DNA from: Vasconcelosia minhoensis LEGE 07310
Lineage (GTDB): Bacteria > Cyanobacteriota > Cyanobacteriia > Phormidesmidales > Phormidesmidaceae
Length of the DNA stretch: 64,000 nucleotides
Reading direction: 5' to 3'
Assembly: GCF_015207255.1 (NCBI RefSeq)
Contig: NZ_JADEXG010000025.1
Span: 1-64,000, forward strand
Below the pieces are notes generated by a model. The model ran no database searches. It was not told the origin of the DNA and saw only the letters and a list, made by a program, of their open reading frames with translations. Of this stretch, positions 50,751 to 54,059 are shown piece after piece. Each line of letters starts with the position of its first letter. Position 1 is the first letter of the stretch. Position numbers and translations under genes: made by a program.

Positions 50751-52184
50751 CTAGTGATGCACCACTGCCCGCTTGTAGGCCTCATCCAGCACTTCGGAAA
50801 GCGTGGGATGGGTGTGGACAAACTGCGCAAGCTGCTCGACTGACTGCTTCTGCGCGATCGCGTTGGCGGCTTCCTGAATCAAATCCGCCGCGTGCAGGCC
50901 AATAATGTGGGCTCCCAGAACCTCGCCGGTGTCTTCACGATAGATTAGCTTGGCCAAGCCCTCTGATTCAGCCTCAGCCAGCGCTTTGGAATTGGCCTTG
51001 AAATAGCTGCGCACGGTGCCGACCTTGAATCCCTGGCTGGCGGCCAGCTCCTGAGCAGCGGGTTCGGTCAGGCCGACAAAGCTGACTTCGGGGTGGGTGA
51101 AGGCCGCCGCTGGGATACTGCTGTAGCTGACGCTGCGATGGTGCTGACAGATGTTGTCCACCGCCACAACCCCCTGGGCTGAGGCCGCATGGGCCAGCAT
51201 CATCTTGCCGGTTGCATCGCCGATCGCCCAGAGGTGGGGCACCGGCTCGCCCTCTAGCAGCACGGCCATCTGGTCGTTTACGGGTAAGAAGCCCCGCCGG
51301 TCTGCTTCAACAGCAACCGTCTCCAATCCTAGGTTGCGAGTTGCCGGCAGCCGTCCGGTCGCGACTAGGCAGGCATCTACCTCTAGCACATCGACCGTTT
51401 CCTTGGTTTTCGGATCCGCCAGCTCAATCACCACTGGAGAACCCGGTGTTACCGACTTGGCGATAACGCCAACCCGGGTTTCGATGTCGCGCGGCTGGAT
51501 CAGGACCCGCTCAGCCTGTTTGGCAATGTCGGGATCAAACGTCGGCATCAGCCGATCCAGCGCCTCGATCATCGTCACCTCGGTTCCCAAGGCCGTGTAA
51601 ACGTCCGAAAACTCTAGGCCGATGTAGCCGCTGCCGATAATCGCAATCCAATCGGGTAGCCAGTCCAGCCGGATCGCTTCGTCGCTGGTGAAGACCGTTT
51701 TGCCGTCGGTCTCAATGCCGGGCGGCACAAAAGGAATTGAACCCGGCGCCAAAATAATGTCTCGGGCAGTCAAAGTACGCTCGCCCTCGGCGGTAGCGAC
51801 AGTTAGCTTTTGGCTTCCGGCTAGCTTGCCCCAACCGCGGATGGTCTCTACCCCTAGCCGCTTCAGGCTGTTCGTCAGGTCGGCCTGAAGCTTATCGACC
51901 AGGTTTTTGGCGTGGTTTGCGATCTCGTTTCGTTCGAACGTCACGCCAGCAACCTGAATCCCCATGGCTCTGAGGTGCTGAGCATCGCGCATCTCACGCA
52001 CTCGACCAGAAGCAGCCAGTAAGGCCTTGGAGGGAATACAGCCGCGATTGACGCAGGTCCCCCCCATATCACCCGCCTCCACAATCGCCGTCTTGAGGCC
52101 ACACTTGACTGCGTGCAGCGCTGCGCCATGGCCCCCAACCCCGGCGCCGATAATCACCAAATCGTAATCAAATGCCTGACTCAC
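50751..52184 (-). CDS. lpdA: Dihydrolipoyl dehydrogenase
   Basis: A 477-residue flavoprotein (E3) of the pyruvate dehydrogenase and glycine cleavage complexes that reoxidises dihydrolipoyl groups with NAD. FAD loop [15 protein letters not shown], redox disulfide [13 protein letters not shown] near residues 42-54, NAD loop [14 protein letters not shown] near 185, and the C-terminal active-site HTHPTLSEV with the catalytic His. The GTG at 52184 has AAGGAG about 7 bases upstream. The IS element begins 94 bases upstream of it. Confidence 0.96.
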
Positions 52185-52316
52185 GGTTTTCTCCTTCGTC
52201 CAAACAGCGCCCAGAGCGATCGCGGCTGAGCCATTTCTCATTATTCAACCAGATAGCGAGATTAGACAACTATCCCTTTGACACTCCCATGGATAAATCC
52301 AATGGGATTCTCCCGT

Positions 52317-53504
52317 CTAGGCCGACCAAGGGAACAAGCTTAACTGTTCGTCTTGAGTCGGATTCATGGAGTTCAGGGGACTGTCAAAGACCCCATCCGC
52401 TGAAGCCACGACGCCCATTACAGACGCCGCTTCTTTTAGAATCAGCGGACATGAAAAGCCATCCCATTGAGCGATATTCACAGCAGCATTCCAATCCGCA
52501 TTGCACTGGTAGCCATCTGCCCCAGTGAATAGATGCCGGTTGCGCTTGCCATCTAATCGCCCGGTACGATGGTCGGTTTTCGATGTGTAGGCCGCAGGCC
52601 GCTTATGTACCTGCCTGCCCTTCAGGGCCATCTTGTAGCCCAGCTTCTGCTCCAGGTCGTAGTAGGCCCAGGTATGGCGAGACGTTCCGGCGTCAGAGCG
52701 GTTTTTCTGGCGCTGCTTGGAGGTTTGCCGAATCTTTGATAAGTCCTCCAGATACACATCAGCGCCCACACCGTCAGCAAACCGTACAATCCGCCTGCTG
52801 ATAGTATGATTGACTGCTCGCATCCACCGCGACTCTTTGCGCTCAAGCCGCTTCACGGCCCGATACTTGCGTGCCTTCTGGAGCTGCTGGCGCAGCTGCT
52901 GGAACTGACGACGGCGATGTGCCACCTCAGCGCCTGAGAAAAACAGGCATGGCCCGTCAATCGTCGCAGCTACTGCCAAATTGTTTTGCCCCCGGTCAAC
53001 GCCAATGCGCGCAGCACTCTCCACCTCAGGAACGTCCCAGGTGATTGAAAGCACGGCGTACCAGCTACCCCGTAGCCGCATCAGCTTCAGCGTTCCTTTC
53101 AGAGCGACCCCATCAATGATGGCATCAAGCTGTTCAGCAAAGTGGCCCTGGACGCTAATCGGAACCCGCTTAACGCCTTGGACAGTTGGGAAGCTAACCG
53201 AGTAGGTCTGGCCAACTTTGACCACTTTCCAGTTCTGCTTGTTCACTTCAGGCCAGAACACCCTGAACGTCTTGACACGCTTGCCTGCCTTTCCTTTCAA
53301 GATACGAATCACTTGATTGGACAAGGCCGACTTTAGCGGCGTGACAACCTGGGCAGTCGTCAACTTTTTCCGTTCAGCAAAAGGCATCTTCAACAGCTCA
53401 TTCGCCAACTGAGTAGACGCGGCTACCGTATCAGCAAACATATCGGCCTTGGCCTGATTGAGGTCAAGGAACTTGAGCTTAAGGGTTGTAGTTACCTTTT
53501 TCAT
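52317..53504 (-). CDS. tnpB: TnpB RNA-guided nuclease of the IS element, zinc-ribbon cysteines absent
   Basis: A 395-residue TnpB, the RNA-guided DNA nuclease ancestral to Cas12. The RuvC residues are kept: Asp170 in GVDRGQNNLAVAA, Glu253 in VYLEDLSKIR and Asp337 in CNADWNAAVNIA. In the region of the usual zinc ribbon (about 307-334: TSKTDHRTGRLDG and LFTGADGYQC) neither CxxC pair is present; only one Cys remains. The rest is intact, so it may still be active or belong to a zinc-less lineage. ATG 53504 chosen; 53522 is also in frame. The guide RNA would be read from its 3' end across the right end of the element. Confidence 0.93.
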   Translation of the reverse strand: MKKVTTTLKLKFLDLNQAKADMFADTVAASTQLANELLKMPFAERKKLTTAQVVTPLKSALSNQVIRILKGKAGKRVKTFRVFWPEVNKQNWKVVKVGQTYSVSFPTVQGVKRVPISVQGHFAEQLDAIIDGVALKGTLKLMRLRGSWYAVLSITWDVPEVESAARIGVDRGQNNLAVAATIDGPCLFFSGAEVAHRRRQFQQLRQQLQKARKYRAVKRLERKESRWMRAVNHTISRRIVRFADGVGADVYLEDLSKIRQTSKQRQKNRSDAGTSRHTWAYYDLEQKLGYKMALKGRQVHKRPAAYTSKTDHRTGRLDGKRNRHLFTGADGYQCNADWNAAVNIAQWDGFSCPLILKEAASVMGVVASADGVFDSPLNSMNPTQDEQLSLFPWSA

Positions 53505-53559
53505 CGGTCTATTGTAGTACATCTATAGACCAGATTAGATAAAGAGGTTAAATAAAAAT

Positions 53560-53958
53560 ATGGCTCAGGATTACCGTCACAGCAACACCTCTGTCTCACT
53601 GCTGAACTATCATTTTGTTTGGATTGTGAGACGGCGGCGAAAGCTTCTAGAAGGGACTGTAGACGACCGACTAAAGGCATTGATATATCAGGCAGTCAAA
53701 GAAATTGACTGCGAAGTTATCGCGCTTGAAACGCACTATGACCACGTTCACTTATTTGTCAACACTCATCCTCGACTAGCGCCTTATCAGGTGATGCACA
53801 AGGTGAAAGGGTTTACGGCCCATGCGCTGAGGGCTGAGTATCCTTGGCTGAAGACAAAGCTGCCTAGCCTATGGACGCGAAGCTACTTCGTCTCAACTGC
53901 TGGCAATGTCTCAGGAGATACGATTAAACGTTATGTAGAAGAGCAAAAATCCAGGTAG
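53560..53958 (+). CDS. tnpA: IS200/IS605 TnpA transposase (Y1, HUH)
   Basis: A 132-residue Y1 transposase that cuts and joins single-stranded DNA at the element ends. HYDHVHLFVN carries the HUH pair near residues 65-67, and TIKRYVEEQ near 123 carries the nucleophile Tyr. Length and both motifs are intact, so it is probably active. It is divergent from tnpB with a 55-base gap. Confidence 0.95.
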   Translation: MAQDYRHSNTSVSLLNYHFVWIVRRRRKLLEGTVDDRLKALIYQAVKEIDCEVIALETHYDHVHLFVNTHPRLAPYQVMHKVKGFTAHALRAEYPWLKTKLPSLWTRSYFVSTAGNVSGDTIKRYVEEQKSR

Positions 53959-54025
53959 ATTGTGAGCAAAGCTCACCGCCTTATATCCCACCCTTGAAAG
54001 TGGTGGGCTTTACGGCGATTTCTGT

Positions 54026-54059
54026 AAACCCGATCGGGCCATCCGGGCAGATCGGGTTT
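54026..54059. terminator. 10-bp hairpin with T-run, target of the IS insertion
   Basis: AAACCCGATC at 54026-54035 pairs with GATCGGGTTT at 54050-54059, followed by T on the plus strand. The IS left-end flank TTAC overlaps its foot, so the element entered at the base of this hairpin. Probably an old terminator of neighbouring host genes. Confidence 0.65.

What the first reader, a model, noticed from the sequence alone, without database searches (positions are those of the whole stretch)
52278..54027. IS608-like ends resolve the element and predict the TnpB guide
Reading the minus strand, I see flank TTAC, then AAAG directly before the left hairpin (53987-54007), and GAAT directly before the right hairpin (52285-52306), then terminal TCAA. 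For IS608, TTAC and TCAA are the cleavage tetramers and AAAG and GAAT their guides, so a single-base boundary (52278-54023) follows. TnpB systems take their guide from the flank beyond the right end; here it would be the 16-20 bases on the minus strand from 52277 downward. That guide should match the empty site, with TTAC as the adjacent motif.
Basis: partly seen in the sequence, partly recalled or inferred. Interest (0 to 1): 0.62.

Follow-up and report, generated by a model that had tools for sequence, protein, structure and literature searches.

The report
IS608-like transposon with predicted TnpB guide
This is an intact jumping gene of a well-known type (IS200/IS605, like IS608 of Helicobacter) in a cyanobacterium; its exact ends and the stretch of host DNA that should serve as its nuclease's guide were read correctly from sequence alone and hold up against related copies, so it is a clean new example of something known.

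Summary
On the minus strand the window holds TTAC (54027-54024), then a 1746-bp element (54023-52278) with the IS608 signals: guide AAAG and hairpin at the left end; guide GAAT, hairpin and TCAA at the right end. It encodes an intact Y1/HUH TnpA (+ strand) and a divergent intact TnpB (- strand). The tetramers alone are no better than chance, but related copies settle the boundaries: similarity starts at TTAC and stops at TCAA, with unrelated flanks. One related copy has a clean empty site in a sister genome: 626 bases aligned ungapped, joined exactly at TTAC, matching the predicted 20-nt guide 20/20. The window's own empty site was not found (single copy; flanks not conserved in 65 family genomes). 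A guide-RNA scaffold is supported by halved synonymous divergence over the last ~60 tnpB codons and by covarying stems there. Cleavage, TTAC as TAM and the guide RNA itself remain inferred from characterised TnpBs. Mildly unusual: this cyanobacterial TnpB branch lost the zinc-finger cysteines but keeps the catalytic residues under purifying selection; TnpA and TnpB modules are swapped between elements with the same ends. New member of a known kind.

The parts
54024..54027 (-). TTAC: target/left cleavage site (CL), retained flank, predicted TAM for TnpB
   Evidence: start of similarity in nearly all related left ends
52278..54023 (-). whole insertion sequence, 1746 bp, IS608-like (IS200/IS605 family)
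   Evidence: boundaries from related copies; single copy in its genome
54008..54011 (-). left guide GL, AAAG
   Evidence: first three A invariant in 14 left ends, fourth base G in most
53987..54007 (-). left subterminal hairpin (IPL) with one unpaired base
   Evidence: DNA fold of the left end z -3.8; 5 of 8 pairs with compensatory changes
53977..54017 (-). outer 4-bp stem CGCC/GGCG around guide and left hairpin
   Evidence: the repeat finder I2; 82% of cells paired, covariation score above all shuffles
53560..53958 (+). tnpA, 132-aa Y1/HUH single-strand transposase
   Evidence: Pfam Y1_Tnp 6e-37, NCBIfam transpos_IS200, PDB hits including ISHp608 TnpA 2a6m and 2vhg
52317..53522 (-). tnpB, 401-aa RNA-guided nuclease homologue; RuvC D176, E259, D343 kept, zinc-finger cysteines lost
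   Evidence: NCBIfam guided_TnpB 2e-36 above cut-off; alignment; Foldseek match to Cas12f and TnpB structures; dN/dS about 0.1
52278..52450 (-). predicted reRNA/omegaRNA scaffold: 3' end of tnpB plus right end; stems 52448-52439/52406-52397 and 52429-52422/52416-52409 (5' limit approximate)
   Evidence: synonymous divergence falls from about 0.67 to 0.32; covarying stems; RNA fold z -2.65
52307..52310 (-). right guide GR, GAAT
52286..52306 (-). right subterminal hairpin (IPR) with bulged T
   Evidence: 6 of 8 pairs with compensatory changes, covariation 0.70 against 0.20 shuffled
52278..52281 (-). TCAA: right cleavage site (CR), last four bases of the element
   Evidence: invariant in 13 right ends and end of similarity
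52258..52277 (-). predicted 20-nt TnpB guide (host flank) AGGGATAGTTGTCTAATCTC, in the region upstream of lpd
   Evidence: position inferred from the right boundary; only match in the genome is this flank itself, preceded by TCAA and not TTAC

Best explanation
An intact, single-copy IS200/IS605-family element of the IS608 type, inserted 3' of a TTAC in the gap between a SpoU methyltransferase gene region and lpd (dihydrolipoamide dehydrogenase). TnpA cuts the minus strand after TTAC (pairing with AAAG next to the left hairpin) and after TCAA (pairing with GAAT next to the right hairpin), excises a single-stranded circle, reseals the donor strand as TTAC-AGGGATAG..., and inserts the circle 3' of another TTAC without target duplication. 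TnpB carries an RNA made from the 3' end of its own gene plus the right end, continuing about 16-20 nt into the flank from 52277 downward. With TTAC as TAM it should cut the resealed empty site but not the occupied site, where the guide is preceded by TCAA, so that repair from the sister copy restores the element. Shown here: boundaries, ends, intact genes, an RNA-like 3' scaffold, and an empty site for a related copy. Inferred: transposition activity, RNA production, TTAC as TAM, cleavage.
For: Signals in place and identical to published IS608. TnpA matches IS608 TnpA structures. TnpB matches guided TnpB and TnpB/Cas12f folds. In related copies similarity begins at TTAC and ends at TCAA. Hairpins covary. 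Copy L064 in G056: empty site in G088, 626/626 ungapped at 95%, seam exactly after TTAC, 20/20 guide match; G093 agrees, and the join opens one continuous 160-codon frame. A second copy, L065: in G088 both its left-flank end and its right-flank start lie directly at a TTAC, 576 bp apart. Synonymous divergence falls to half over the last ~60 tnpB codons with no matching fall in amino-acid divergence; stems covary there. The guide's only genome match lacks the TTAC.
Against: No empty site for the window's own insertion. No RNA or biochemical data. TnpB lacks the usual four zinc-finger cysteines, which could alter or abolish DNA cleavage. Covariation counts rest on 10-14 sequences. The third G056 copy (L063) shows rearranged flanks and gives no clean empty site.
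Confidence: 0.88

Rival explanations
1. The element and its ends are real, but TnpB is not an active TTAC-dependent nuclease: having lost the zinc finger it acts as an RNA-binding or DNA-binding regulator of transposition, or only on single strands.
For: All four zinc-finger cysteine positions replaced in the window and in most of its cyanobacterial relatives. Published surveys found TnpBs that process RNA but showed no cleavage in a TAM screen (PMC10278001).
Against: RuvC D-E-D residues kept, NADWN motif of the 'Derived' TnpB type; dN/dS about 0.1; scaffold constraint at the 3' end.
Confidence: 0.12
2. The IS608-like signals are a chance pattern and the true ends lie elsewhere.
For: The tetramer pairs alone occur about as often as in shuffled sequence.
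Against: Related copies with unrelated flanks share exactly these end points; empty site of a relative joins at the same base; hairpins covary.
Confidence: 0.01
3. The element is a dead relic: ends and genes are preserved but it no longer moves, and guide and TAM have no present use.
For: Only one copy in the genome, and no short end-derived copies of it were found there.
Against: Both ORFs open with catalytic motifs; tnpB under purifying selection between elements, though this tests the lineage and not this copy.
Confidence: 0.15

Closest known systems
IS608 (ISHp608), Helicobacter pylori, IS200/IS605 family
   Same: CL TTAC, GL AAAG, CR TCAA, GR GAAT, two subterminal hairpins, Y1 TnpA, tnpA and tnpB between the ends
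   Different: Left linker between TTAC and AAAG is 12 nt here (13 in two relatives); an extra outer stem encloses the left guide and hairpin (not compared base by base with IS608); the base after TTAC shows no C preference (about 4 of 15 right flanks, against ~70% TTAC|C reported for IS608)
ISDra2 TnpB of Deinococcus radiodurans (characterised reRNA-guided nuclease)
   Same: Guide taken from the flank beyond the right end, TAM equal to the TnpA target (PMC8612924); fold match 8exa and 8h1j
   Different: TAM predicted TTAC rather than TTGAT; zinc-finger cysteines absent; about 16% identity in the structural alignment
'Derived' TnpB clade (RuvC-III NADxN) of the published TnpB/Cas12 classification
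   Same: NADWN motif; two 5' stem-loops plus a 3' stem-loop within 10 nt of the guide, as described in PMC10278001
   Different: Zinc finger not recognisable by its cysteines in this cyanobacterial branch

Membership tests
IS608-type IS200/IS605 insertion sequence | Y1 HUH single-strand transposase TnpA | tested here: met
   HVH motif and C-terminal tyrosine in KRYVEEQ
IS608-type IS200/IS605 insertion sequence | Subterminal hairpins in place of terminal inverted repeats | tested here: met
IS608-type IS200/IS605 insertion sequence | CL TTAC, GL AAAG, CR TCAA, GR GAAT | tested here: met
IS608-type IS200/IS605 insertion sequence | Insertion exactly 3' of TTAC without target-site duplication | tested here: met
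   met for a related copy with empty sites in G088 and G093; the window's own empty site was not found
IS608-type IS200/IS605 insertion sequence | Single-strand circle intermediate, lagging-strand bias | not testable with these tools
   needs experiment; the genome is in 161 contigs
TnpB RNA-guided nuclease | RuvC catalytic D-E-D | tested here: met
   D176, E259, D343
TnpB RNA-guided nuclease | Zinc finger with four cysteines in the TNB domain | tested here: not met
   TNB profile matches over its whole length but the four cysteine positions hold other residues; an atypical member by this feature, still above the curated guided_TnpB cut-off
TnpB RNA-guided nuclease | Structured guide RNA from the 3' end of tnpB and the right end | tested here: inconclusive
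   synonymous constraint and covarying stems support it; the RNA itself was not observed
TnpB RNA-guided nuclease | TAM-dependent DNA cleavage | not testable with these tools
   needs biochemistry

The most novel reading that the evidence does not exclude
A cyanobacterial branch of TnpB has dispensed with the zinc finger while remaining an active TTAC-dependent, RNA-guided nuclease, so that the TNB domain works by a metal-free fold; and in this branch ends, TnpA and TnpB are exchanged as modules while the TTAC/TCAA specificity stays fixed.
Probability: 0.35. Interest if true: 0.4.

Novelty: new member of a known kind. Interest (0 to 1): 0.27.

Why it matters
It shows that single-base ends and a TnpB guide can be read off one genome by analogy and then verified comparatively. 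It supplies a compact TnpB of 401 aa with a predicted TTAC TAM, a delimited scaffold and a defined guide, ready to test, from a branch without the usual zinc finger. Otherwise the mechanism is the one already known for IS608 and ISDra2.

Tried and rejected
Chance match of tetramers: considered because they are not enriched, rejected on comparative boundaries. Multiple copies in the own genome as a boundary test: none exist. Empty site of the window's own insertion: 65 family genomes searched, only sequence at the start of lpd matched. Empty site for the closest full-length copy (L051) in its genus: no flank matches. Third G056 copy L063: flanks lie in different places in G089, no clean empty site. 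Rfam: no known RNA family at the right end. A literature search for TnpBs without zinc finger found no dedicated report in the open-access library; this does not show that none exists. A pair count of the right hairpin inside alignment A4 was written out of register (helix 3) and is disregarded in favour.

Full report
Observation. Reading the minus strand, the sequence is ...GATCGGGT TTAC AGAAATCGCCGT AAAG CCCACCACTTTCAAGGGTGGG ... GAAT CCCATTGGATTTATCCATGGG AGTG TCAA AGGGATAG.... TTAC is 54027-54024, AAAG 54011-54008, the left hairpin 54007-53987, GAAT 52310-52307, the right hairpin 52306-52286, TCAA 52281-52278. The element is therefore 54023..52278, 1746 bp. These four tetramers are the published IS608 CL, GL, GR and CR (PMC5934647). 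Taken alone the tetramer pairs are not unusual in 64 kb, so the claim needed outside evidence.

Genes. tnpA (53560-53958, +, 132 aa) is a Y1/HUH transposase whose solved relatives include IS608 TnpA. tnpB (53522-52317, -, 401 aa) passes NCBIfam's guided_TnpB cut-off, and its AlphaFold model (mean pLDDT 74) matches Cas12f and TnpB structures. The two genes diverge, with tnpB pointing at the right end, as the right-end guide model requires. Downstream in the same direction lies lpd, whose likely start by homology (GTG at 52182; judged from the sequence and the relatives' matches) is about 95 bp from the element.

Boundaries from relatives. The element is single-copy in its genome. Searches of relatives gave further copies. 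When these are lined up, similarity begins at TTAC and stops at TCAA, with unrelated sequence outside. One left end has TTAT with AAAA in place of AAAG, a single case that fits pairing between the two; the L066 left end did not align there. Three further Xenococcaceae elements (L035-L037) and an Okeania one (L038) end in GGAGTGTCAA as well. Both hairpins show compensatory changes.

Empty sites. A related copy in G056 (L064) sits in a chromosomal open frame. The same gene without the element is present in G088: the joined flanks align over 626 bases without a gap at 95%, and the 60 bases around the seam differ at one position; the 20 bases after the right end match 20/20 directly after TTAC. 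G093 gives the same join at 82%. A second G056 copy (L065) has its left flank ending at one TTAC and its right flank starting after another TTAC that are 576 bp apart in G088. Recombination between two copies in the same orientation, or a TnpA-made adjacent deletion, would explain this (inference). The third copy (L063) is rearranged and uninformative. For the window's own site no empty site was found, because the intergenic stretch is not conserved in 65 genomes of the family.

The guide. ISDra2 TnpB takes its guide from the flank beyond the right end and uses the TnpA target as TAM (PMC8612924). By that rule the guide here is AGGGATAGTTGTCTAATCTC (52277-52258) and the TAM TTAC. Comparative evidence for an RNA: among five intact tnpB genes (pairwise dN/dS 0.08-0.13) synonymous divergence is about 0.67 along the gene but 0.43 and then 0.32 over the last 60 codons, without a matching fall in amino-acid divergence. 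Two stems in that stretch covary across ten elements, including ones whose reading frame there is different or closed. The layout, two stems and a terminal hairpin within 10 nt of the guide, is that reported for 'Derived' TnpBs (PMC10278001), and the protein has the NADxN motif of that clade. In its own genome the guide matches only its own flank, where TCAA replaces TTAC, so the occupied site would be spared.

Departures from the textbook. The four zinc-finger cysteine positions are replaced in the window TnpB and in most of its cyanobacterial relatives, while more distant Firmicutes and Bacteroidales relatives keep them. RuvC residues remain. An outer stem encloses guide and hairpin at the left end. 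Modules are exchangeable: G007 has TnpB 75% but TnpA 36% identical; G056 has TnpA 54-55% identical but a TnpB of another clade, split between two frames in the L064 copy; L034 and L053 keep tnpB without an intact tnpA.

Verdict. The finding is confirmed and its interpretation supported; what remains untested is biochemistry and the window's own empty site. It is a new member of a known kind.

Noticed in passing
window 52317-53522 (-); L034, L053, L051, L054, L066, L038: TnpB of this cyanobacterial branch has lost all four zinc-finger cysteines (YTSKTDHRTGRLDGKRNRHLFTGADGYQCNADWN) while keeping the RuvC D-E-D residues.
   Followed up: partly
L054 (G007), 1001-2727: Element with TnpB 75% identical to the window's but TnpA only 36% identical: the transposase module appears to have been exchanged.
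   Followed up: partly
L063, L064, L065 (G056): Three nearly identical 1.7-kb elements with the same ends and a related TnpA but a TnpB of a different clade (with zinc finger); in the L064 copy this tnpB is split between two frames.
   Followed up: partly
L053 (G020:C47): tnpB-only element in which the tnpA place holds a small ribbon-helix-helix-like ORF (MKREKRVPIMFSEVELAKLDKLAEKEGVSRAEMIRKLVDRASS; identified by eye only).
   Followed up: no
L057 849-1321 and L058 967-1439 (G020): Two 473-bp elements with the same TTAC/TCAA ends and no TnpA or TnpB match: probably non-autonomous derivatives mobilised in trans.
   Followed up: partly
L065 (G056) against L126 (G088): Relative to G088 the insertion comes with a 576-bp deletion whose two end points are both TTAC: recombination between two copies or a transposase-made adjacent deletion.
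   Followed up: partly
L134 (G088) about 441-505: Remnant of about 65 bp keeping the first 16 bases from TTAC and the last 55 bases to TCAA of the element.
   Followed up: partly
window 52182-52277: The insertion lies about 95 bp upstream of the likely lpd start with tnpB reading towards lpd, so readthrough from the element may drive or perturb lpd expression.
   Followed up: no
window 54026-54059: A strong inverted repeat (15-nt arms, 4-nt loop) abuts the TTAC target on its left side; possible terminator or hairpin near the target.
   Followed up: no
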